From Pleomorphomonas sp. T1.2MG-36 (lineage in GTDB: Bacteria > Pseudomonadota > Alphaproteobacteria > Rhizobiales > Pleomorphomonadaceae): DNA of 64,000 bases. The stretch covers positions 124,001-188,000 of the forward strand of contig NZ_CATNLY010000034.1 of assembly GCF_950100655.1 (NCBI RefSeq), in the 5' to 3' direction. The position numbers and the translations under genes are program-made. This document shows, piece after piece, positions 3,617 to 61,933 of this stretch (positions are counted from its first letter, which is position 1; each line of letters starts with the position of its first letter). Under the pieces are notes generated by a model. It was not told the DNA's origin. It did not search any database and saw only the letters and a list, made by a program, of their open reading frames with translations.

Positions 3617-5163
3617 AAGATACCCCGATCCTCCATCGTCTTGTCCCCGGCGAGGTACCGCTGTCCGTCTGGCGCGCCATCTATTTCGGTGACGGCGCAA
3701 CCATCGACGCCGCCGCGCGCGGCCCGGTCGACAAGGCCGCCGCCGCCATCGAGGCGATCATCGGCAAGGGCGACCCGGTCTACGGCGTCAACACCGGCTT
3801 CGGCAAGCTGGCCTCGGTGCGCATCGACGCCGCCGATCTGGAAACGCTCCAGCGCAACATCGTGCTGTCGCACGCGGCCGGCGTCGGCGAACCCCTGTCC
3901 ATATCGGTCGTCCGCCTCATCATGGCGCTGAAGCTCGCGAGCCTTGCTCAGGGTGCCTCTGGCGTACGCTGGACGACGCTCGAGCAACTCGCAGCCTGTC
4001 TCGAGCGTGGCCTGATCCCGGTCATTCCGGGGCAAGGGTCGGTTGGCGCCTCTGGCGATCTCGCCCCGCTCGCTCACATGACGGCGGCCCTGATGGGCGT
4101 CGGGCAGGTGTTCGTCGAAGGGCGCCCCGTCGATGCCGCCGCCGCGCTGGAAGCGAACGGCCTCAAGCCGCTCGTGCTTGGCCCCAAGGAAGGGCTGGCG
4201 CTCCTCAACGGCACGCAGGTGTCGACGGCGCTGGCGCTGGCTGGATTGTTCGAGACCGAGCGCGTCTTCCAGGCGGCGCTCGTCACCGGCGCATTGTCGG
4301 TGGACGCGGCCAAGGGCTCCGACGGTCCGTTCGATCCGCGCATTCACCTGCTGCGGCGCCACAAGGGCCAGATCGACGTCGCCGCCGGTTTGCGCGCCCT
4401 GCTGTCCGGCTCGGCCATTCGCGCCTCGCATCTCGACGACCACGGCCGCGTGCAGGACCCCTACTGCCTGCGCTGCCAACCGCAGGTGATGGGCGCGTGC
4501 CTCGACCTGCTGCGTCAGGCCGCCGTGACCCTCAACGACGAAGCCAACGGCGTGTCCGACAACCCGCTGGTGTTCACCGACACCGGCGAGGTGATCTCCG
4601 GCGGCAACTTCCACGCCGAGCCGGTTGCCTTTGCTGCCGATATCATCGCCCTCGCCCTCTGCGAGATCGGCTCGATCGCCGAACGCCGCATCGCCATGCT
4701 GGTCGACCCGGCACTCAGCGGACTTCCGGCTTTCCTGACGCCCAAGCCGGGCCTCAACTCAGGCTTCATGATCCCGCAGGTGACGGCGGCGGCTCTCGTT
4801 TCCGAAAACAAGCAGATGGCCCATCCTGCCTCGGTCGACTCCATCCCGACGTCGGCCAACCAGGAAGACCACGTGTCCATGGCCGCTCACGGCGCCCGTC
4901 GCCTCCAGGCCATGGCGAGGAACGCCGCCCACGTCATCGGCATCGAATATCTCGCCGCCGCGCAGGGCATCGGGTTCCACGCGCCGCTCGGCACGTCCAC
5001 GCCTCTGGCCGCCGCCATCGATCTGTTGCGCGCCGACGTGCCGCCGCTCGCCGATGACAGACACTTCGCCCCCGACATCGACGCCGCCAGCCGCCTCGTC
5101 ACATCCGGGCGGCTTGCCGCCGCGATCGGAGACGGCCTCCTGCCGGCCCTGGTGCACGAATGA
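3613..5163 (+). CDS. hutH: Histidine ammonia-lyase
   Basis: HutH removes ammonia from L-histidine to give trans-urocanate, the first step of the pathway. The 516-aa length is normal. The Ala146-Ser147-Gly148 tripeptide within [15 protein letters not shown] should cyclise to the MIO prosthetic group. [11 protein letters not shown] (about 57-67) and the [11 protein letters not shown] segment are also typical. It overlaps hutI and hutG by 4 bases at each end (ATGA), so the three genes form a tight operon. hutU (urocanase), which links HutH to HutI, is not in this window. Confidence 0.97.
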
Positions 5164-5984
5164 ACGAAGCGACACCCGATCCGGTGATCCGGCGCGGCGC
5201 GGCGCCACTCGTTCTTTCCCTGCCGCATGTCGGCACGGCCATTTCCGAGGATATCGAGGCGAATCTCGTCTCGCCGTGGCTGGCGAGAAAGGATGCCGAC
5301 TGGTGGATCGATCAGCTCTATGCGTTCGCAGGCGAGCTCGACGCCACCATCGTCCGCGCCCACTGGTCGCGCACGGTGATCGACCTCAATCGCGATCCGA
5401 CCGGCGTCTCGCTCTATCCGGGACAGGCCACCACCGGTCTGTGCCCTGTCGAAACCTTCGACGGCGAGCCGCTCTATCGTCAGGGCAAGGAGCCCGGTGC
5501 CGATGAAATCGAAGCGCGCGTCGGGCTCTACTATCGTCCCTACCATGAGGCGTTGAGCAAAGAAATTAGCCGGCTACGGAAAGGTTGGGATCGCGTGGTC
5601 GTCTACGACTGCCACTCCATCCGTTCCGCCATTCCTCGTTTGTTTGCCGGCAAACTACCTGTCTTCAACCTGGGCACCAACAGCGGTGCGTCGGCCGATC
5701 CTGAGCTGGTCGAGCGCGTCTCCGGCGTGATCGCCGGCTCCGGCCGCAGCCACGTGGTCGATGGACGGTTCAAGGGCGGCTACATCACCCGCCATTACGG
5801 TCAGCCCGAGAAGGGCATCCACGCCCTGCAGATGGAGCTGGCCTGCCGGGGGTATATCCGCGAAAGCCTGGGGCCTGTCGACGAGGCCAACTGGCCGGTC
5901 GCCTTCGATCCGGTCTTCGCCGCGCCGACGCGGGAAACGCTTCGGGCCGTGCTTGCTGCCTGTCTGGCTTTCGCCAGGAGCTGA
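5160..5984 (+). CDS. hutG: N-formylglutamate deformylase
   Basis: HutG hydrolyses N-formyl-L-glutamate to glutamate and formate. It belongs to the N-formylglutamate amidohydrolase family; the 274-aa length fits. Family features include LSLPHVGT near the N-terminus, [20 protein letters not shown] and a [11 protein letters not shown] block. This branch of the pathway also requires a formiminoglutamate deiminase (HutF), which is not seen here. It is the last gene of the hutIHG operon and ends 4 bases from the convergent transglutaminase gene, leaving no room for a separate terminator. Confidence 0.93.
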
Positions 5985-5988
5985 CGGA

Positions 5989-6903
5989 TCATTCGACCAC
6001 GCGAAGAGGCCGCTTTCCGGATGCTCCTGACAAGGGAATGACGTCGACGGCCACCGTCAGGCTGTGGGCGCCGGAGGCGACGATGACGCCGTCGAGAGGC
6101 GAGACGTCGGAATAGTCGCGACCGATGGCGAGCACGAGGTGATCCTCGCCCGCCACGATGCCGTTGGTGGGGTCGAGCCCCACCCAGCCAGCCTCGCCGC
6201 CGCACCACACCTCCACCCAGGCATGGGTCGCGTCGGCTCCTTCCAGCCTTTCCCGGCCGGGCGGCGGTTCGGTGCGAAGATAGCCGGAGACGTAGCGCGC
6301 CGGCAGCGCCAGGCCGCGCAGACCGGCGATCATCACGTGAGCGAAGTCCTGGCAGACGCCCTTCTTCGCCACGAAGGCATCCGACGGGCTGGTGTCGGCA
6401 TCGGTGGCCCCGAGCACATAGGCGAAGTCGCCCTTGATCCGCTTCATGAGTTCGATCGACCCTTCCAGCACCGGTCGCCGGGCCGGAAAGGACAGCGCGG
6501 CATAGCGGGTGATGGCGGCATCGAGCGGAACCGACGGCGAGGCGAAAAGGCCGTGCACGGGGGAATCGGGGCCGGGGTCGCCACTCGCCACCGCGAGCAG
6601 GCGGATTTCCTCGGCCGGCGGCGTCAACGCGGCGAGGTAGGGCTCGGTCGGCGCCACCTCCACCTCCGCCTCCAGGCGAACGACCAACTCGTCGTGCGGC
6701 CGGTCGAGGGCGAAATGGCAGATGCGGTTGCCGAAGAAATCCACGGTCTCGCGCCGTTCGGCCGGCGCGGGCGATATGGACAGCGCCGCCCGGCGCACTA
6801 CCTGCCCCTTGCGATCCACCGGCAGGAGGCGGGCGACATGGCTCGAATAGGGAACCGCCGCCGTATAGAGATAACGCGTTTGCTGGCGGAGCTCGTAGAT
6901 CAT
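5989..6903 (-). CDS. Transglutaminase-like cysteine peptidase-fold protein
   Basis: This 304-aa protein has a beta-rich N-terminal domain of the bacterial transglutaminase N type (residues 1-100) and a transglutaminase-like core. Its apparent catalytic triad is Cys184 (KKGVCQDFAHV), His227 (DATHAWVEV) and Asp244 (GLDPTNG). There is no signal peptide. Members of this family can cleave or form amide bonds; which applies here is unknown. Its start overlaps the stop of the ATP-grasp/alpha-E gene by 4 bases, so the two are translationally coupled. It is the last gene of a three-gene minus-strand cluster. Confidence 0.9.
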   Translation of the reverse strand: MIYELRQQTRYLYTAAVPYSSHVARLLPVDRKGQVVRRAALSISPAPAERRETVDFFGNRICHFALDRPHDELVVRLEAEVEVAPTEPYLAALTPPAEEIRLLAVASGDPGPDSPVHGLFASPSVPLDAAITRYAALSFPARRPVLEGSIELMKRIKGDFAYVLGATDADTSPSDAFVAKKGVCQDFAHVMIAGLRGLALPARYVSGYLRTEPPPGRERLEGADATHAWVEVWCGGEAGWVGLDPTNGIVAGEDHLVLAIGRDYSDVSPLDGVIVASGAHSLTVAVDVIPLSGASGKRPLRVVE

Positions 6904-9416
6904 TCCAGCTCCTCCGGCTGCGCTTCACTCGGCCGCTGGGTGAAGAAGCGATCGGTAACGAGCCCGGACAGCCGCAACAGCCGGCCGTTGATCTTGTCGA
7001 TATCGCGCGCCTCGATCTTCTCGGCCGCCGTGTTGGCAAGCCGCGCATCGAGCTTGCGGGCAAGGCGCAGGAGTTCCACCGGGCGCCCGTCGAGGCGGGT
7101 GGCCGGCAAGGCTTCCAGATGCTCGACGATACGCGCCGTCTGGAAGGCGACGGAACGTGGATTGGCATCGTCGAGCATCAACAGGTCGATCACCGGCAGA
7201 GGCGCCGGCCGCATGACGTAGCGCCAACGATAGGTGATCTGGCTGTCGCCCGCTTCCAGTGCCAGATCGAGCGCCTCGGTCGACGGCGCATCGAGTGCGA
7301 AGCGGCGGACCACGGCCGCCGTTGCGAGAGCCCGTTCGATCCGACGACCGAGGTCGAGAAAGCGCCAGCCCATGGCTCGGTTCATGTTCTCGGCGGCGAG
7401 ACCTGCGAAGGCGGCGATGCGGCGCAGGCCGTGATTGACCTCGTCGAGCATCTGAGCCGGCGTGAGACGACGACGCCCGATGCTTTCGAACAGAACGGCG
7501 ATTTCCGTCACCGCCCGGAAGGCATCCGGCGCCAGACGATCGCGGATGGCCGAACCGGCGGCGCGCGCCGCGCCGGTCAGCGCCGGCAGGCCCGAGGGCG
7601 AGGCCGGATCGCTGAGGGCGGCGGCGACAAGCTCGACCGGCGTGCCCTTGCGCTCGAGATCGACGGCGCCAATAAAACGCAAATGATCGGTCAGCGCCCG
7701 GACGATCGGCTGGTCGGCGTCACCGCCCGCGTCCACCAGGCGGTTGATCAGCGCCCTCAGAAGGCGCAGCGTCGCCTCCGACCGTTCCAGATAGCGGGCC
7801 AGCCAATAGAGGTTGTCGGCCGAGCGCGACGGCAGCGTACCGGTGGAGCGCCGAATGGAGGCACGATCCGGCTGCGGCAGCAACGAGACTTCCCTGACCG
7901 GCGCATCGGACAGAACCCAGACGTCGGCCGTCTCGGCCCCCTGCTGCATGGACACGAGGCGCGCGTCACTCGACCCGGAAATGCGGCAGAAGCCGCCGGG
8001 CATCACCACCCAGTCGCTGTCGCCGACGGCCGCCACGAACAGGCGCAGCACGAAGGGCTTGGGCACAAGACGATTGCCGTCCCACACCGGCATGGTGGAA
8101 AGACCGACATTTTCCTGACCGACCACGTCGAGACCGCGCGTCTCGATCAGCGTCCGGGCCGCCTGACGCTCGGTCTTGTTCATCGCCGCGCCGAGCTTGC
8201 TCCAGAAGGGCAGCCCCGGCAACGGCCCGGAAAAGGCCGAGGCGATGGCCATGCGATCGAAGCCGCCGAGCACCGCCCGCCGCTCCGCCTCCTGTCCGCA
8301 CCACCATGTGGCGAGGTTCGGCAGTTCCAGCTCCTCGCCAAGGAGGTGCCGGCAAAGGGCCGGCGTGAAGCCCATCAGCGCCCGCGACTCGGCAACGCCG
8401 GAGCCGAGCGCATTGGTGACATCGACGCGCCCGGACCGAACGGCTTGGACGAGGCCCGGCACGCCGAGCGCCGAAGCAGTGCGCAGTTCCAGGGGATCGG
8501 CAAAATCGCCGTCGAGGCGGCGCCACAGCGCGTCGATGCGCTTGAGACCGGACACGGTGCGCACGTAGACGGCATCGCCCCGCACCGTCAGATCGCCGCC
8601 CTCCACCAGCAGGAAGCCGAGGTAGCGGGCGAGATAGGCGTGCTCGAAATAAGTCTCGTTAAGCCGGCCCGGCGTCAGCAGACCGACGCGCGCCTCGGCA
8701 CCGGCGTTGAGGGCGGCGAGATCGTCGCGGAAAGCCTGGAAGAACGGCGCGAGACGCTCGACGTTGAGGCCACGCGCCACTTCCGGCAGCGCCCGCGTCA
8801 CCGCCAGCCGGTTTTCCAGCGCATAGCCGGCACCCGAGGGGGCCTGGGCACGATCGGAAAGCACCCACCACCGACCATCGAGGCCACGACCGAGATCGAC
8901 GGCAAAAAAGCGCAGGAAGCGGCCGCCCTTCGGCACGACGCCCACCAACGGCCGCAGGAAATCCGGGTTGCCGGCTATGGCGGCGGCGGGCAGAACCCCG
9001 TCGCGCGCAAGCCGTCCCGAACCATAGACATCGGCAAGCAGCGCCTCGGCAAGCCGGGCGCGCTGGACGGCGCCAGCTGACAGCGCCGTCCATTCCGACT
9101 GAGAAATGAGCAGCGGCACCGGCGCCAGCGGCCAGGGGCGCTCGGCGCCCGCCGGATCGTCGTAAACGCGGAAGAACACGCCGGAGTTCTTGAGCTGCTG
9201 CTCGGCGCCGGCAAAGGCCTCCCGCACGCCCTCCTCGCCGAGGTCCGCCAACCGTTGCAGAAACGACGGCCAAGGGCCGCGCAACGAGCCGTCCGGCGCC
9301 ATCATCTCGTCATAGGCGCCCGCGAGCGGCTTATACCCCCGCGTCAGCAAACCCAGTCCGGCTTTGGGCTCGGCTTTCTGTCCGGCGGGGATCGGATCGG
9401 GCTGCAACTGACTCAT
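6900..9416 (-). CDS. Circularly permuted ATP-grasp / alpha-E domain fusion protein
   Basis: This 838-aa protein joins two domains often encoded separately. Residues 1 to about 525 form a circularly permuted ATP-grasp ligase (DUF404/DUF407 type), with YDEMMAPDG near the N-terminus and an EQQLKNSGVFFRVY block. Residues 530-838 form the helical alpha-E (DUF403) domain, starting at SRSADNLYWLARYLERSE. ATP-grasp enzymes of this kind are predicted peptide ligases that join a carboxylate to an amine using ATP. It sits between two transglutaminase genes on the same strand, overlapping the downstream one by 4 bases and lying 89 bases after the upstream one. The substrate is unknown. Confidence 0.9.
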   Translation of the reverse strand: MSQLQPDPIPAGQKAEPKAGLGLLTRGYKPLAGAYDEMMAPDGSLRGPWPSFLQRLADLGEEGVREAFAGAEQQLKNSGVFFRVYDDPAGAERPWPLAPVPLLISQSEWTALSAGAVQRARLAEALLADVYGSGRLARDGVLPAAAIAGNPDFLRPLVGVVPKGGRFLRFFAVDLGRGLDGRWWVLSDRAQAPSGAGYALENRLAVTRALPEVARGLNVERLAPFFQAFRDDLAALNAGAEARVGLLTPGRLNETYFEHAYLARYLGFLLVEGGDLTVRGDAVYVRTVSGLKRIDALWRRLDGDFADPLELRTASALGVPGLVQAVRSGRVDVTNALGSGVAESRALMGFTPALCRHLLGEELELPNLATWWCGQEAERRAVLGGFDRMAIASAFSGPLPGLPFWSKLGAAMNKTERQAARTLIETRGLDVVGQENVGLSTMPVWDGNRLVPKPFVLRLFVAAVGDSDWVVMPGGFCRISGSSDARLVSMQQGAETADVWVLSDAPVREVSLLPQPDRASIRRSTGTLPSRSADNLYWLARYLERSEATLRLLRALINRLVDAGGDADQPIVRALTDHLRFIGAVDLERKGTPVELVAAALSDPASPSGLPALTGAARAAGSAIRDRLAPDAFRAVTEIAVLFESIGRRRLTPAQMLDEVNHGLRRIAAFAGLAAENMNRAMGWRFLDLGRRIERALATAAVVRRFALDAPSTEALDLALEAGDSQITYRWRYVMRPAPLPVIDLLMLDDANPRSVAFQTARIVEHLEALPATRLDGRPVELLRLARKLDARLANTAAEKIEARDIDKINGRLLRLSGLVTDRFFTQRPSEAQPEELE

Positions 9417-9505
9417 CGGAGTTCCGGCATGGACGGCGGGCGGGGGCGCCGCGAGTTAAGCAGACAGACGGGACATCGCCAAGATGTCCGCCAGTCGACA
9501 AGGCA

Positions 9506-12500
9506 TCAGATGCCGGCCGGCCGCCGGAGGTCGAGTGTGGTGGGAAATTCCCCGGACGTTTCTTCATCCGGCAGGCTCATCATTCCGAGAGAGTGGCCGA
9601 AGTCCTGGAAGCGAGCCAACCGCCTCGCTTCCGCTTCATAGGCGTTGACGGGGAAGGTATCGTAGTTGCGGCCGCCGGGATGGGCAACGAAGTAGGTGGC
9701 CCCACCCAGCGAGCGCTTGGACCAGCGATCGACGATCTCGAAGGTCAGCGGCGCGTTGACCGGCAACACCGGATGAATGCCGCTGGCCGGCTGCCAGGCC
9801 TTGAAACGAACGCCGCCGACATAATCGCCTCTGCGGCCGGTCGCAGCCACCGGCACACGCCGGCCGTTACAGGCCAGCACGTGGCGCGCCGGATCGAAGC
9901 CGGAAACGCGGGCCTGCAACCGCTCCACCGAGCTGTCGACGAAACGCACCGTGCCGCCGCCCCCGCCTTGCTCGCCGGTGACGTGCCATGGCTCCAGCGC
10001 GCCGCGGAGCTCCAGCGAGACGCCCTGCCGGCTGATCGTGCCGAAGTAGGGGAAGCGGAACTCGCGCTGGGCATCGTACCAGACCGATTCCATCGGGAAG
10101 CCCGCCCGGTTGAGGTCGGCGATCACCTCAAGAAAGTCCTGCCAGACGAAATGCTCCAGCATGAAGCGGTCGAACAGCGCCGTACCATGGCGCGTGAAGC
10201 CACCCTCAAGCGACTCCTTCCAGAACCAGGCGATCAACGCCCTGAGCAGGAGCTGCTGGGCGAGCGACATGCGCGAGTCCGGCGGCATCTCGAAGGACCG
10301 GAACTCCACGAGGCCCAGCCGACCGGTCGGGCCGTCCGGCGAGAACAGCTTGTCGATGCAGATTTCCGAGCGATGCGTGTTGCCGGTGACATCGGTCAGA
10401 AGGTTGCGGAACAGGCGATCGACCAGCCAGGGCAAGGGCGCGCCCCCTTTGCCCGGCGCCGGCACCTGGGCGAGCGCGATTTCCAGTTCGTAGAGACCGT
10501 CGTGCCGCGCCTCGTCGATGCGCGGTGCCTGGCTGGTCGGCCCGATGAACAGGCCGGAAAACAGATAGCTCAGCGACGGGTGGCGCTGCCAATAGAGGAC
10601 GAGGCTCTTGAGAAGGTCGGGACGGCGCAAAAATGGGCTGTCGGCAGGCGTTTCGCCACCCACCACGACGTGATTGCCGCCTCCGGTACCGGTGTGGCGG
10701 CCATCGATCATGAACTTGTCGGTACCGAGGCGGGACAACCGCGCCTCCTCGTAGACGGCCGAGGTGATGGCGACGCAGTCCTTCCAGCCGGCGGCGGGAT
10801 GGATGTTCACTTCGATGACGCCAGGGTCGGGCGCCACGCGGATGACGTTGAGGCGTGGGTCGTGCGGCGGCGGATAGCCTTCGATATGGACGGGCAGGCA
10901 GAGATCCTCGGCCGTCGATTCCACGGCGGCGAGCAGCTCCAGATAGTCGTCGGCACCGGCGACCGGCGGCATGAACACGCAGAGCCGGCCATTCCTCGGT
11001 TCGACGCTCATGGCCGTGCGGACCGCACCGACGCCAGTCATCCATTGATCGACACGCGGATCGTCAGCCGCCTGTTCGCGCGAATGCTCGTAGGCAGTGG
11101 CGAGCTGATCCGGATCCGGCAGATCGGGCAGGTCGCCCATCAGGTCGCGGTCGACGTGGAAGGGATAAGCGGCCGGCGGCACCCATGGCAGCGCCGCAAG
11201 CGGCAGGCGGAAGCCAGCCGGCGAATCGCCCGGAACCAGATAGAGTTTGCCACGCCGGAAATTCCAGACCTCCGACACCCAGGTCCTGCCTGCGCTGGCC
11301 TGCCAGCGCTGCACGGGAAGCACATAGGCGCTGGGAGTCCCGAGGCCGCGCTCGAAAACCCGGGCAATGCGAGCACGCGCTTCCGGGTCATCCAACCTGC
11401 TATCTTCCGTGGTGACGTTGTCCGGCAGGCCGCTTTCCTTCAGAATCCAGTAGGCCGGGTCCTCGTAGGCCGGAACGGCGCACTTGCCGGACACGCCGAG
11501 CCGTCTGGCGACGCCGCGCGCCAGCGCGCAGGCCGCTTCGGCGTCGGCCGGCGTCGGCTGCCGCTCGGGCGCGACGAGATCGAGATTGCGCCAGATCGGC
11601 TTGCCGTCCTTGCGCCAGTAGAGAGAGAAGGTCCAGCGTGGCAGGCTCTCGCCGGGATACCACTTGCCCTGTCCGTAATGCAGAAAACCGCCCGGCGCGA
11701 AACGAGCGGCAAGGCGACGGATCAGGTCGTCGGCAATGCCACGTTTCGTGGGACCGACCGCCGCCGTGTTCCACTCCTCCGATTGATAGTCGTCGATGGA
11801 GACGAACGTCGGCTCGCCGCCCATGGTCAGGCGCACGTCGCCGTCCCTAAGATCGGCATCCACCACCTGCCCCACTGCGTCGAGCCTCGCCCAGGCTTCT
11901 TCGGAAAACGGCCAGGTGACGCGCGGTCGCTCGTCGATGCGGGCTATCTTCATGTCGAAGAAGAATTCGGTCTTGGTGTCGGGCGCCCCGCTGTAGGAGC
12001 CGACAATCGGCGCCGCAGAGCGATAATGCGGCGTGGCGGCGAGCGGAATGTGGCTCTCGCCGGTCAGAAGGCCCGAGGTGGGGTCGAGACCGACCCAGCC
12101 GGCACCGGGAATATAGACCTCCGCCCAGGCGTGCAGGTCGGTGAAATCGACCTCCGTGCCGGACGGGCCGTCGAGTGCCTTGACGTCGGGCTTGAGCTGG
12201 ATGAGGTAGCCGGAAACGAAGCGGGCAGCGAGGCCGAGCCGGCGCAGAAGCTGCACCAGCAGCCAGCCGCTGTCGCGGCAGGAACCGGCGCGGCGCGACA
12301 GCGTCTCCTCCGGGCTCTGCACGCCGGGTTCGAGACGGATCTCGTAGGCGATGTGCCCTTGCAGTGCCTGATTCACCGCCACCACGAAATCGGTGGTCTG
12401 CTTGCGATCGCGCGGGATCGTCGCAAGATAGGCCTCGAAGAGGTCTCCCTCCCCCTCGCATTCGAGGAAGGGTGCCAGATCCTTGGCGAGCTCCGGCGCG

Positions 12501-12817
12501 TAAGCGAATGGCCAGTGCTCGGCGTAATCCTCGATGAAGAAGTCGAACGGATTGTAGACCGCCATCTCGGCAAGCAGATCGACGCTGACGGAAAACTCGG
12601 ACGTCGGCTCGGGGAAGACGAACCGGGCCAGCCAGTTGCCGTGCGGATCCTGCTGCCAGTTGACGAAGTGATTCTCCGGCGTGACCTTCAGCGCATAGGC
12701 CGGCACGGCCGTCCGGCTGTGCGGTGCGGGCCTGAGACGCACCAGTTGCGGAGAGAGAACGACCGGCTTGTCGTAGACATAGCGGGTGACGTGCGTCAGC
12801 TTGGTCAGGACAGCCAT
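9506..12817 (-). CDS. Transglutaminase-DUF2126 amidoligase fusion protein
   Basis: This is a 1103-aa cytoplasmic-looking protein. The N-terminal part (1-300) is a transglutaminase-like domain with Cys180 ([10 protein letters not shown]), His229 (DLHAWAEVY) and Asp245 (GLDPTSG). From about 320 to 1000 it is DUF2126, a predicted COOH-NH2 ligase related to the glutamine-synthetase/GCS fold. Candidate active-site blocks there are EVNIHP (Glu669), GTGGGNH (710-716) and [10 protein letters not shown] (746-755). The ATG at 12817 has AGGGAG 5 bases upstream. The fused peptidase-like and ligase-like activities suggest editing or turnover of an amide-linked product made together with the ATP-grasp protein next door. 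Confidence 0.9.
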
Positions 12818-57827: not shown

Positions 57828-58070
57828 ATGCCAACCGTCACACGCTTTCTCGGCTTTCTCTTCGTTCTGGCCGCCATCGCCATGGCCGCCGTGCTGGCGC
57901 TGGCCTATCTGGTCACGCCGGAGCCGCGCACCTTTACCGTCCCGATCGATGCTTCGGTACTCTCGGGCGCCCGCCCCCTGTCGCCGCCGCCAGCCGCCCC
58001 CATGCCGGATCCGGCCACGACCGGATCGGTCGAGATCGACCCTGCCGGCCCACCGGCCAACGCCCCATGA
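57828..58070 (+). CDS. Small single-pass membrane protein coupled to xerD
   Basis: This 80-aa protein has one N-terminal hydrophobic segment (FLGFLFVLAAIAMAAVLALA) and a Pro/Ala-rich tail that would face the periplasm. I do not recognise a family. Its stop overlaps the xerD start by 4 bases (ATGA), so xerD translation depends on it. It is divergent from aroK with about 90 bases between. Confidence 0.65.
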   Translation: MPTVTRFLGFLFVLAAIAMAAVLALAYLVTPEPRTFTVPIDASVLSGARPLSPPPAAPMPDPATTGSVEIDPAGPPANAP

Positions 58071-59002
58071 GCGTCAGTGACGCCACGCTGGTCGAGACCT
58101 ATCTCGAGGCGGCAAGCATCGAGAATGCCGCCTCCGACAACACGCTCGCCGCCTACCGCGCCGACCTCGATCTCTACATCGGTTTTCTTGCCGGTCGGGG
58201 GCGCGGCCTCCTCGACGCGGCGACGGACGATGTCGAGGATTTCGTCGCCGGGCTCGCCGCGGAGGGCTACGCCGCCGCCACGCAGGCCCGCCGCCTGTCC
58301 GCCGTCCGCCAGTTGCACAAGTTCCTCTACACGGAGGGACGACGCGCCGACGACCCCACCGCGCGGGTCGACCGCCCCCGTACCCGCCGTCCGCTGCCCA
58401 AGGTACTTTCCGTCGAGGACGTCGGCCGACTGATGGACGCGACCGCCGCCACGGCCGCCGAGCCCGTCGAGGATCGGGCCGAAGCGCTGCGCCGTACCCG
58501 CTTCTGGGCCATGCTGGAAACGCTCTATGCGTCCGGCCTGCGCGTCTCCGAGCTCGTCGGCCTGCCGGCCGGCGCCATCCGCGAGGGCACGGCCGCCATG
58601 ACCGTGCGCGGCAAAGGCTCCAAGGACCGGCTGGTGCCGATCGGCGACACCGCCCGCGCCGCCGTCATCGCCTATCGCAGCCTCCTCAAGGCAAGCGGCC
58701 GGCACGCCGGTAGCCCCTTCCTGTTTCCGGCCAACTCCGAAACCGGCCACGTGACGCGCCAGAGTTTCGCCCGCGACCTCAAGGACGCCGCCGCTCGGCT
58801 GGGCATATCGCCCGACAAGGTGTCGCCGCACGTCCTGCGACATGCCTTCGCCAGCCATCTGCTCCAGAACGGAGCCGACCTTCGCATCGTCCAGGAATTG
58901 CTCGGCCACGCCGACATCGGCACGACCGAGATCTACACGCACGTTCTCGAGCACCGTCTCGCCGCGCTTGTCGCCGATCATCACCCACTGTCCGAGCGAT
59001 AA
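58067..59002 (+). CDS. xerD: Tyrosine recombinase XerD
   Basis: XerD resolves chromosome dimers at dif with XerC. The 311-aa protein has an N-terminal SAM-like core-binding domain (SDNTLAAYRADLDLYIGFL) and the C-terminal catalytic domain. Its tetrad is visible: Arg in SGLRVSELVGL, Lys in GKGSKDR, His-x-x-Arg in HVLRHAFASHLL, His in LGHADIGTT and the Tyr nucleophile in EIYTHV. Its position next to accA and its sequence fit the housekeeping enzyme, not a phage integrase. Confidence 0.95.
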   Translation: MSVSDATLVETYLEAASIENAASDNTLAAYRADLDLYIGFLAGRGRGLLDAATDDVEDFVAGLAAEGYAAATQARRLSAVRQLHKFLYTEGRRADDPTARVDRPRTRRPLPKVLSVEDVGRLMDATAATAAEPVEDRAEALRRTRFWAMLETLYASGLRVSELVGLPAGAIREGTAAMTVRGKGSKDRLVPIGDTARAAVIAYRSLLKASGRHAGSPFLFPANSETGHVTRQSFARDLKDAAARLGISPDKVSPHVLRHAFASHLLQNGADLRIVQELLGHADIGTTEIYTHVLEHRLAALVADHHPLSER

Positions 59003-60358: not shown

Positions 60359-61933
60359 GTGACCATGAGTGAAACGGAGAGCATGACCTCGTTCCGCCCG
60401 AACCAGCCCTCTCCAGGCATTTCCATCGCCGGCCGCCTTGCGCGACTTGCGGTCGCCCTCGGTCTCGCCGCGCTTCTGGCCGCCTGCCAGGCCGACGAGA
60501 TCGGCTACGGCTATGGCCCCAAGGACCAGCGCCCGGTGTCGGCGAAGACGCTTGAGCTCATGAAGAAGCTCAACATGAAACTCTCCTCCCCGGTGCTGAT
60601 GCGCATCTTCAAGGAGGAGAACAAGTTCGAAGTCTGGAAAATGAATGCGAGCGGGCGCTACGACCTGCTCAAGAGCTACGACATCTGCCGCTGGTCGGGC
60701 GATCTCGGGCCAAAGGTCAGGGAAGGCGACAGGCAGGCGCCGGAAGGCTTCTACGCCATTTCGCCCGGCTTGATGAATCCCAAGTCGGACTGGTATCTCG
60801 CCTTCAACACCGGCTTCCCCAATGCCTATGACCGGGCCAACGGCCGCACCGGTTCGGCGCTGATGGTGCACGGCTCCTGCTCGTCGCGCGGCTGCTACGC
60901 CATGACCGACCAGCAGATCCAGGAAATCTACGCCCTGGCGCGCGAAGCCTTCCGCGGCGGCCAGAAGGCGTTCCAGCTGCAAGCCTTCCCTTTCCGCCTC
61001 AACGGCAAGAACATGGCCAAGCACTGGAACGACCCCAACATGGCCTTCTGGAAGATGCTGAAGGAGGGCTACGACACCTTCGAGATGACCCGTATGGAGC
61101 CGAAGGTGGACGTCTGCGGTCGCAAGTACGTGTTCAACGCCAATCCGGCCCAGCCGCTCGACACGGTCGCCGCCTGTCCCGCCGACCTGGGACAGCCCAA
61201 GGAACTCGTTGCCTCGCTTCAGACGAGGGCCAAGTCGGACTATGCCGAGGCCGAGGTGCTGTTCGCCAAGCTCGAGGAAGACCGCAAGGCTGAGGAAGAC
61301 AAGCGCGTTCAGGTGGCGCTTGCCGCCGAGAAACGCAAGGCCGATGCCGAAAAGGCGCAGGCCGACGCCGAAGCCGCCCGCATCGAAGCCGAGCGTAATC
61401 CGGGTGCTCTCGCCCGCCTGCTCGGCGCCGAACCCAACCCGGACGCGGGCATCACGGTGGGACCGGTGATCGTGCCGCCGACCGGCGCGCCGGTGCCGAT
61501 CGCCGATCCGCGCGGTCCTCGGATTCACGCCGTGGCCATGACCGAGCCCGTCGAACAGGAACGGGCCGGCGCCATTTCCCGCCTGTTCTCCTTCGTGACC
61601 GGCGGGGACAAGACCGAAGCGGCTCCCGTCGCCCCGCCGACCGCCCCCGTGGCCACGGCGCCCGGCGCCCTGGCAGCACCTGCCTCGCCGGCGCCGCCCG
61701 GTCCGGTCGTATCCGCGCCCACGGTCGCCGCACCCATTCCCCCACTGCCCGGTCGACCGTCTCCGTCCGGAGCGAGCCAGCCCGGCGCGATCGCGCCTTC
61801 GGCTGCGCCGCAGCCTGTCTGCGCCATGCCCGGCGTCGCGGTTCCCCCCGGCACTCCGCCGTGCCCGGCCGTGGCCGCCGCACCGACGGAAGCGGACAAG
61901 AGCATTCTCGACCGCATCGGCAACTGGTTCTGA
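60359..61933 (+). CDS. YafK-type L,D-transpeptidase lipoprotein
   Basis: This 524-aa protein has a lipobox LLAAC (lipid-acceptor Cys43) and a YkuD-type catalytic domain with His171 and Cys179 in HGSCSSRGCYAM. The preceding FNTGFPNAYDRANGRTGSA is the hallmark of YafK/DpaA-like members, which act on peptidoglycan or its bound lipoprotein. After about residue 280 comes a charged Ala/Glu/Lys coiled-coil stretch and a long Pro/Ala-rich tail. The GTG at 60359 has GGAAGG 7 bases upstream; ATG 60365 is the alternative. Confidence 0.88.
   Translation: MTMSETESMTSFRPNQPSPGISIAGRLARLAVALGLAALLAACQADEIGYGYGPKDQRPVSAKTLELMKKLNMKLSSPVLMRIFKEENKFEVWKMNASGRYDLLKSYDICRWSGDLGPKVREGDRQAPEGFYAISPGLMNPKSDWYLAFNTGFPNAYDRANGRTGSALMVHGSCSSRGCYAMTDQQIQEIYALAREAFRGGQKAFQLQAFPFRLNGKNMAKHWNDPNMAFWKMLKEGYDTFEMTRMEPKVDVCGRKYVFNANPAQPLDTVAACPADLGQPKELVASLQTRAKSDYAEAEVLFAKLEEDRKAEEDKRVQVALAAEKRKADAEKAQADAEAARIEAERNPGALARLLGAEPNPDAGITVGPVIVPPTGAPVPIADPRGPRIHAVAMTEPVEQERAGAISRLFSFVTGGDKTEAAPVAPPTAPVATAPGALAAPASPAPPGPVVSAPTVAAPIPPLPGRPSPSGASQPGAIAPSAAPQPVCAMPGVAVPPGTPPCPAVAAAPTEADKSILDRIGNWF

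What the first reader, a model, noticed from the sequence alone, without database searches (positions are those of the whole stretch)
5989..12817. Candidate amide-bond-forming and -editing system of unknown product
Three coupled or closely spaced minus-strand genes encode a stand-alone transglutaminase-like protein, a circularly permuted ATP-grasp/alpha-E fusion and a transglutaminase/DUF2126 amidoligase fusion. The sequence shows two intact Cys-His-Asp triads (C184/H227/D244 and C180/H229/D245) and two different predicted ATP-dependent ligase folds. Comparative-genomic work by Aravind and colleagues on amidoligase families predicted that such sets make or edit peptide tags, but I know of no established substrate or product. 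Two ligases plus two peptidase-like domains suggest synthesis and trimming of one amide-linked molecule.
Basis: partly seen in the sequence, partly recalled or inferred. Interest (0 to 1): 0.8.

Follow-up and report, generated by a model that had tools for sequence, protein, structure and literature searches.

The report
Amide-bond gene cluster with dead ligase
Three neighbouring bacterial genes belong to a widespread, still unexplained amide-bond-making and -cutting gene set, but one of the two supposed "ligases" appears to have lost the parts needed to use ATP and probably works with a second, intact gene set elsewhere in the same genome.

Summary
Observation confirmed: 5989-12817 (-) encodes a transglutaminase-like protein (TG), a circularly permuted ATP-grasp/Alpha-E fusion and a TG-DUF2126 fusion; both Cys-His-Asp triads are intact. 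The set is common (DUF2126 in 120 of 398 sampled Pseudomonadota genomes) and is of the kind predicted by Iyer et al. 2009 (paper not held; recalled and cited by others).

The interpretation needs correcting. The fusion's ATP-grasp half lacks canonical Mg/ATP residues: E187, N189, R191 and K345 occur in 0 of 34 fusion-type and 146 of 146 stand-alone-type sequences (wider samples show rare single retentions). It is under purifying selection: a conserved pseudo-ligase. All 120 DUF2126 genomes also have a stand-alone-type ATP-grasp, within 10 kb of DUF2126 in 48. This genome's lies on another contig, beside a TG paralogue that has lost Cys and His. The window set is best read as half of a two-module system with reciprocally degenerate parts.

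The stand-alone module carries sigma54-like promoters (36 of 149 genomes; 0.74 expected; none here), and one published cluster is strongly NtrC-dependent. The product is unknown, and the DUF2126 fold could not be tested.

The parts
5989..6903 (-). Stand-alone transglutaminase-like cysteine hydrolase (TG), 304 aa; triad C184/H227/D244 (Cys codon at 6352-6354)
   Evidence: Pfam PF08379+PF01841; triad intact 78/78; nearest solved relative 3isr, E 2.5e-11
6900..9416 (-). Circularly permuted ATP-grasp/Alpha-E fusion, 838 aa; its 3' end overlaps the start of the TG gene by 4 nt
   Evidence: Pfam PF14403, PF04174, PF04168; nearest solved relative 3n6x, E 1.8e-80
8844..8858 (-). Degenerate Mg-site motif of the fusion (residues 187-191): S-D-R-A-Q where stand-alone ATP-grasps and 3n6x have E-D-N-[LA]-R
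   Evidence: E187, N189, R191 in 0/34 vs 146/146
8202..8243 (-). Degenerate ATP-lysine / Gly-rich-loop region of the fusion (residues 392-405); 3n6x and the C1 paralogue have K-E-V-Q-G-S-G-G-Y-G-M
   Evidence: K392 in 6/34 fusion-type vs 146/146
8382..8384 (-). Residue 345: R in the window, K (of D-D-K) in all stand-alone-type sequences examined
   Evidence: 0/34 vs 146/146
9506..12817 (-). TG-DUF2126 fusion, 1103 aa; TG triad C180/H229/D245; DUF2126 domain about residues 281-1098 (9524-11977)
   Evidence: Pfam PF09899 1286 bits; triad invariant 131/131 and 102/102; 31 chosen DUF2126 residues conserved in 41-43 of 43
5160..5984 (+). hutG N-formylglutamate deformylase (end of a hut operon), convergent and adjacent to the TG gene; probably not part of the system
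   Evidence: TIGR02017; adjacent in the 3 Pleomorphomonas loci of 80; weaker homologues (27-31% identity) lie 3.6-7.4 kb from TG-DUF2126 in 9 further loci; none found in 22 diverse loci

Best explanation
The window holds the 'DUF2126 module' of a two-module amide-bond system. SHOWN by sequence: (1) the module has two intact transglutaminase-type Cys-His-Asp hydrolase/transferase sites and a highly conserved DUF2126 domain; (2) its ATP-grasp half is a conserved pseudo-ligase lacking the usual Mg and ATP residues; (3) every DUF2126-bearing genome sampled also has a paralogous stand-alone ATP-grasp of an anciently diverged clade whose examined members keep those residues, usually with Alpha-E and often with TG and Anbu; (4) in this genus the TG of that second module is the dead one. 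INFERRED: the two modules act as one machine. The intact ATP-grasp (on contig C1 here) and DUF2126 make amide bonds; Alpha-E and the pseudo-ligase/Alpha-E fusion are the scaffold or substrate-binding partner, a heteromeric pseudo-enzyme/enzyme pair; the live TG sites, and Anbu, cut or transfer the product. The system is probably used under nitrogen limitation in many hosts. The product (peptide tag on proteins, or a small gamma-glutamyl-type or other amide) is not determined.
For: Pseudo-ligase: E187, N189, R191, K345 in 0/34 fusion-type vs 146/146 stand-alone; K392 6/34 vs 146/146. In 77 fusion-type proteins from named loci N189 0, R191 0, E187 1, K345 1, K392 2. 20 more fusion-type loci show the same pattern with retentions such as E187 in G259, K345 in G147, R191 in five genomes of one family. 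The motifs are intact in the solved relative 3n6x. Kept by selection: dN/dS 0.060-0.103 for the pseudo-ATP-grasp against three congeners, like its neighbours. Both clades are single-origin, 100/100 (14 fusion-type, 55 of 146 stand-alone sampled). Linkage: all 120 DUF2126+ genomes have an ATP-grasp of the intact clade (at least 45% identity to the C1 one); 8 have no fusion-type match and none has only the fusion. DUF2126 lies within 10 kb of it in 48 of 120, and Anbu within 10 kb of DUF2126 in 16 of 76 genomes with both. DUF2126 without Alpha-E: 0 of 120. Reciprocal loss: own second-module TG has P/A at Cys/His; Cys lost in 12/12 and His in 10/12 congeners. Across genomes the second-module TG is intact in 52/83 DUF2126+ and 54/63 DUF2126- genomes (p 0.0025), degenerate in 6 vs 0. 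Nitrogen: sigma54-like sites at 36/149 stand-alone ATP-grasp genes vs 0.74 expected, 0 on the opposite strand. In B. cenocepacia H111 a cluster of DUF404/407, DUF403, TG and large TG proteins falls by log2 8.2, 9.4, 9.4 and 6.0 in an ntrC mutant under nitrogen limitation (PMC5491218, passages). Anbu is reported up in N-limited P. putida (PMC5666114 section 14).
Against: In this genome the two modules are on different contigs (C34, C1) and neither shows a sigma54-like site; nor did two Burkholderia/Caballeronia clusters scanned the same way. Among Alpha-E-bearing genomes DUF2126 and Anbu show no positive association (76/44/66/26, OR 0.68, p 0.24). The fusion also occurs without DUF2126 in 11 genomes, plus one incomplete one. 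Piasecka et al. (PMC6376114, passages) detected no specific interactions between Anbu-operon proteins. Genome counts are not phylogenetically independent, and the TG comparison was made after seeing the first cases. No structure or activity supports the DUF2126 ligase role here. The residue roles (Mg ligands, ATP lysines) are recalled from ATP-grasp enzymology, not from a ligand-bound relative.
Confidence: 0.55

Rival explanations
1. One reading: the window set is self-sufficient, with two active ligases (ATP-grasp and DUF2126) that synthesise, and two peptidase-like domains that trim, one amide-linked molecule.
For: Domain set and conserved order; intact triads.
Against: The ATP-grasp ATP/Mg residues are lost; an ATP-grasp of the intact clade accompanies DUF2126 in 120/120 genomes, and 8 of these have no fusion-type match.
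Confidence: 0.1
2. Protein-tagging for Anbu: the ligases attach amino acids or peptides to proteins, TG sites edit the tag, and the proteasome-like Anbu degrades tagged proteins to free nitrogen.
For: Anbu next to TG-DUF2126 in several lineages (L124-L128; 16 genomes within 10 kb); Anbu up under N limitation; own Anbu keeps T1/D17/K32.
Against: 44 of 120 DUF2126+ genomes have no Anbu match; Y. bercovieri Anbu showed no peptidase activity and no partner interaction (PMC6376114 passages); no tag or substrate known.
Confidence: 0.2
3. Nitrogen scavenging by temporary glutamylation of amines, working like the Puu or GlnA4 routes (recalled): a GS-like ligase couples glutamate to an amine and a cysteine hydrolase releases the product.
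For: NtrC/sigma54 association; co-occurrence with urea-metabolism domains in marine metagenomes (PMC3597751 passages); ligase plus cysteine hydrolase.
Against: No oxidase or dehydrogenase in the conserved set; immediate neighbours here are a hut operon, GNAT and DUF2332; DUF2126 fold untested.
Confidence: 0.1
4. The fusion's ATP-grasp is not dead but changed: its own conserved residues (D-R-x-Q-A-P-S-G in most, E310, E343) form a different catalytic or nucleotide site.
For: The replacement motif is itself conserved in most fusion-type sequences; purifying selection.
Against: Both the Mg ligands and the lysine/Gly-loop region are gone; the loop varies in length and sequence in the fusion clade.
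Confidence: 0.1

Closest known systems
Predicted peptide-tagging system with circularly permuted ATP-grasp, GS-like ligase, Ntn-peptidase and Alpha-E (Iyer, Abhiman, Burroughs, Aravind 2009; not held; known from citing papers and recalled)
   Same: Same protein families and gene neighbourhood; product unknown
   Different: Here the modules are split over two loci and the ATP-grasp in the DUF2126 module lacks the ATP/Mg residues; whether that paper noted an inactive paralogue could not be checked
Anbu operon (ATP-grasp, Alpha-E, transglutaminase-like, Anbu; Y. bercovieri, P. aeruginosa and others; PMC6376114 passages and sections 8 and 18, PMC5666114 passages and section 14)
   Same: The second module in this genome (C1: ATP-grasp, Alpha-E, TG; Anbu about 26 kb away) is of this type; the Y. 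bercovieri ATP-grasp released phosphate from ATP (PMC6376114 section 8)
   Different: The window module has DUF2126, a fused ATP-grasp/Alpha-E and no Anbu; its ATP-grasp clade is separate
NtrC/sigma54-controlled cluster I35_5080-5083 of Burkholderia cenocepacia H111 (PMC5491218, passages and outline seen)
   Same: DUF404/407 + DUF403 + TG-like + 'large protein containing transglutaminase-like domain', a name that one source also gives a DUF2126 protein (P0315); the layout matches the B. arboris locus L358
   Different: Regulation measured there; no such promoter found in this genome
PDB 3n6x, putative glutathionylspermidine synthase (circularly permuted ATP-grasp)
   Same: Same family as the window ATP-grasp half by sequence (E 1.8e-80)
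   Different: 3n6x has E-D-N-L-R, D-D-K and K...GGYG; the window protein lacks them

Membership tests
Predicted ATP-grasp/Alpha-E/transglutaminase/DUF2126 amidoligase system (Iyer et al. 2009, recalled) | All four domain families encoded together in conserved order | tested here: met
Predicted ATP-grasp/Alpha-E/transglutaminase/DUF2126 amidoligase system (Iyer et al. 2009, recalled) | Ntn-hydrolase (Anbu) partner | tested here: inconclusive
   Not beside the window set; Anbu gene on contig C1 of the same genome
Predicted ATP-grasp/Alpha-E/transglutaminase/DUF2126 amidoligase system (Iyer et al. 2009, recalled) | A demonstrated peptide or amide product | not testable with these tools
   No product named in the listings and passages seen (searches)
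Active ATP-grasp ligase | CP_ATPgrasp domain match | tested here: met
   PF14403 449 bits
Active ATP-grasp ligase | Mg ligands (E, N), ATP lysines and Gly-rich loop | tested here: not met
   residue roles recalled
Transglutaminase-like (Transglut_core) cysteine hydrolase/transferase | Cys-His-Asp triad | tested here: met
   for both window TG domains; not met for the C1 paralogue (PAD)
GS-like (glutamine synthetase/GCS fold) ligase | GS fold and ATP site in DUF2126 | tested here: inconclusive
   No solved relative by sequence; profile comparison uninformative because the GS-GCS2 control also failed; structure prediction not accepted
Anti-phage defence system | Match to PADLOC models | tested here: not met
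   0 of 5 proteins

The most novel reading that the evidence does not exclude
A phylum-wide nitrogen-stress machine is built from two duplicated modules that have become mutually dependent. One keeps the working ATP-grasp and may lose its transglutaminase; the other keeps the transglutaminases and DUF2126 but carries a conserved pseudo-ATP-grasp that acts as a templating or allosteric subunit for the working one.
Probability: 0.4. Interest if true: 0.7.

Novelty: new member of a known kind. Interest (0 to 1): 0.48.

Why it matters
The Anbu/DUF2126 gene sets are widespread (Alpha-E in 212, DUF2126 in 120 of 398 Pseudomonadota genomes sampled) and no established product turned up in the listings and passages seen. 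Knowing which ATP site is plausible, that the fused one looks like a pseudo-ligase, and that a second locus must be considered changes which proteins should be assayed together. The sigma54/NtrC link gives a condition, nitrogen limitation, under which to look for the product. If the two modules are interdependent, expressing one locus alone may miss activity in genomes that carry both.

Tried and rejected
FGase/HutG link: N-formylglutamate deformylase ends next to the TG gene here and in the 3 Pleomorphomonas loci of 80. An earlier count that measured only from the DUF2126 end missed weaker homologues (27-31% identity) 3.6-7.4 kb from TG-DUF2126 in 9 further loci; none was found in 22 diverse loci. 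I read the adjacency as the end of a hut operon, but a functional link is not excluded. Self-sufficient window set: rejected on the ATP-residue loss. Defence system: no PADLOC match. Phage cargo: one weak TG-only phage match and no relative in the viral-contig scan. GS-fold test by profile comparison: uninformative because the positive control failed; one GS frame was probably mis-picked. sigma54 control of this very locus: not found. Literature was searched. The vesiculation paper PMC12096838 concerns a different, membrane-fused inactive transglutaminase (passages). The S. meliloti GWAS paper PMC8407117 lists a COG2308 regulatory-region hit (passage), too weak to use. PMC10318531 and PMC8665760 (passages) gave nothing on function. 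Iyer et al. 2009 (PMC3268129) is not held. The Rv2566/Rv2567 name search gave one paper, seen in the listing only.
Full report
WHAT IS THERE. The three minus-strand genes are real: TG (5989-6903), ATP-grasp/Alpha-E fusion (6900-9416) and TG-DUF2126 fusion (9506-12817), with Pfam matches far over the curated cut-offs. The genome is a Pleomorphomonas-like member of Hyphomicrobiales, from the nearest named proteins and loci. Downstream and convergent is a hut operon (hutG, hutH, amidohydrolase); upstream are a GNAT and a DUF2332 gene. G+C is even across the first 22 kb, 0.65-0.70.

CONSERVED ORDER. In 80 named loci, TG-DUF2126 > ATP-grasp/Alpha-E > TG on one strand holds in 70. Seven have under 3.7 kb of contig left: L034, L065 and L070 show the start of the ATP-grasp gene; L022, L036, L059 and L076 show none in the 759, 548, 5 and 1897 nt left. 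Three differ although there is room (L018 permuted, L068 and L073 with no partner nearby). The same order occurs in Granulicella (Acidobacteriota).

A SECOND SET IN THE SAME GENOME. Contig C1 carries a stand-alone ATP-grasp, Alpha-E and TG (L006), and an Anbu gene about 26 kb away (L007), with Anbu residues T1, D17 and K32 present. A tree of ATP-grasp domains (14 fusion-type, 55 of 146 stand-alone) separates the two types with 100/100 support.

THE FUSED ATP-GRASP LOOKS LIKE A PSEUDO-LIGASE. Against the solved relative 3n6x and the C1 paralogue, the window protein reads SDRAQAPSG for EDNLRTPSG / EDNARTPSG, ESR for DDK, and lacks the K...GGYGM segment. E187, N189, R191 and K345 are present in 0 of 34 fusion-type and 146 of 146 stand-alone type, K392 in 6 of 34 and 146 of 146. 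The 34 are 13 from loci, 20 sampled from the homologue list (every fourth row of A2) and the window. In 77 fusion-type proteins from 84 named loci: N189 0, R191 0, E187 1, K345 1, K392 2. There four true stand-alone ones keep all five; a fifth row labelled stand-alone (L065) is a fusion cut by the contig end. Twenty further fusion-type loci, 12 from genomes without DUF2126, show the same with scattered retentions, among them R191 in five genomes of one family. That these residues are the Mg ligands, ATP lysines and Gly-rich loop is recalled from ATP-grasp enzymology. The domain is nevertheless constrained: dN/dS 0.060-0.103 against three congeners, similar to DUF2126 (0.068-0.105), Alpha-E (0.062-0.090) and the stand-alone TG (0.097-0.139). 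The fused copy also conserves residues of its own (e.g. E310; E343 in 33 of 34), so it probably still binds something.

THE TWO SETS BELONG TOGETHER. In 398 Pseudomonadota genomes DUF2126 occurs in 120, Alpha-E in 212 and Anbu in 145. No DUF2126 genome lacks Alpha-E; 107 of 120 have two copies, whereas 80 of 92 Alpha-E genomes without DUF2126 have one. All 120 DUF2126 genomes have an ATP-grasp of the intact clade (at least 45% identity to the C1 one; its residues were read in the 146, not in each genome). Eight have no fusion-type match (G036, G049, G064, G076, G097, G212, G267, G345; G097 is 84% and G212 86% complete), and none has only the fusion. DUF2126 lies within 10 kb of that ATP-grasp in 48 of 120 genomes, and Anbu within 10 kb of DUF2126 in 16 of 76 with both. 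In several lineages both sets are contiguous. Against this: among Alpha-E genomes Anbu and DUF2126 are not positively associated (OR 0.68, p 0.24), and the fusion occurs without DUF2126 in 11 genomes and one incomplete one, followed by a TG with an intact triad in 11 of these 12.

RECIPROCAL DEGENERATION. The C1 TG of this genome has Pro at the Cys and Ala at the His position. In 12 congeners the Cys is missing in 12 and the His in 10; the frame is open in 11 and broken in one (G408). Over 147 genomes with a stand-alone set, its TG is intact in 52, degenerate in 6 and not found within 1.6 kb, or replaced by TG-DUF2126, in 25 of 83 DUF2126+ genomes (1 more cut by an edge), versus 54, 0 and 9 of 63 DUF2126- genomes (p 0.0025 for intact or not). 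Genomes are related and the test followed the first cases, so this is suggestive only. The B. arboris cluster (L358) also has Ser at the Cys position.

REGULATION. sigma54-like -24/-12 sites (at least 10 of 11) lie within 300 nt upstream of the stand-alone ATP-grasp domain in 36 of 149 genomes, against 0.74 (maximum 4) in dinucleotide shuffles and 0 on the opposite strand, with no difference by DUF2126 status (22/86, 14/63). With 500 nt and mononucleotide shuffles, the fusion and Anbu genes show no excess (0/31 and 0/106 at that threshold); TG-DUF2126 has 2/29 against 0.15 expected, and the internal control upstream of Alpha-E 4/150 against 0.55. Published RNA-Seq puts a DUF404/407-DUF403-TG-large TG cluster in the NtrC/sigma54 regulon of B. 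cenocepacia H111, with log2 changes of -8.2, -9.4, -9.4 and -6.0 in the ntrC mutant (PMC5491218, passages). That its 'large protein' is a TG-DUF2126 is my inference from the same name on P0315 and from the B. arboris layout. Anbu is reported up in nitrogen-limited P. putida (PMC5666114 section 14). In the present genome, and in the Burkholderia and Caballeronia plasmid clusters L358 and L123, no such site is found.

WHAT IS NOT KNOWN. The fold and activity of DUF2126, the Alpha-E function, the substrate and the product. No convincing solved relative of DUF2126 or Alpha-E was found by sequence. The Y. bercovieri ATP-grasp of the Anbu operon releases phosphate from ATP, not stimulated by Anbu, Gln or Glu (PMC6376114 section 8), which fits the intact clade being the working one; that it belongs to that clade is inferred from its operon. 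The authors of PMC5666114 consider a peptide-synthesis role of Anbu less likely than protein degradation (section 14).

VERDICT. The locus is an ordinary member of a widespread predicted system. The added finding is that its ATP-grasp looks like a conserved pseudo-ligase, tied to a paralogue of the intact clade in every DUF2126 genome sampled. Whether the 2009 paper already noted this could not be checked.

Noticed in passing
L006:8217-9044 (contig C1, minus strand): Second transglutaminase-like paralogue with Cys and His of the triad lost (PAD); Cys lost in 12 of 12 congeners, frame open in 11 of them: a pseudo-transglutaminase.
   Followed up: yes
L007:17199-18311: Anbu gene separated by about 26 kb from its usual operon partners in this genome; catalytic T1/D17/K32 present.
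   Followed up: partly
L284, L286-L295 (DUF2126-negative genomes): Pseudo-ATP-grasp/Alpha-E fusion followed by a TG with intact triad but without DUF2126, so the fusion-TG pair may be the more basic unit; L285 has the fusion without a TG found.
   Followed up: partly
L021, L025, L037, L042, L048, L049, L053, L066, L085: Distant FGase (N-formylglutamate amidohydrolase-like) homologues 3.6-7.4 kb from TG-DUF2126 in 9 of 80 loci; shared synteny or a functional link not distinguished.
   Followed up: no
L136:9119-11774: DUF2126 reading frame broken into two overlapping ORFs in one genome (G389); described only.
   Followed up: no
L123:10814-11875: A putative zinc-binding metallopeptidase lies between the stand-alone ATP-grasp/Alpha-E pair and TG-DUF2126 in a Caballeronia plasmid.
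   Followed up: no
window 58067-59002 (+) and 60359-61933 (+): Phage-integrase-family recombinase and a YkuD-type L,D-transpeptidase domain protein; the other window genes scanned look ordinary (CobS/CobT, CarD, sugar ABC transporter).
   Followed up: no
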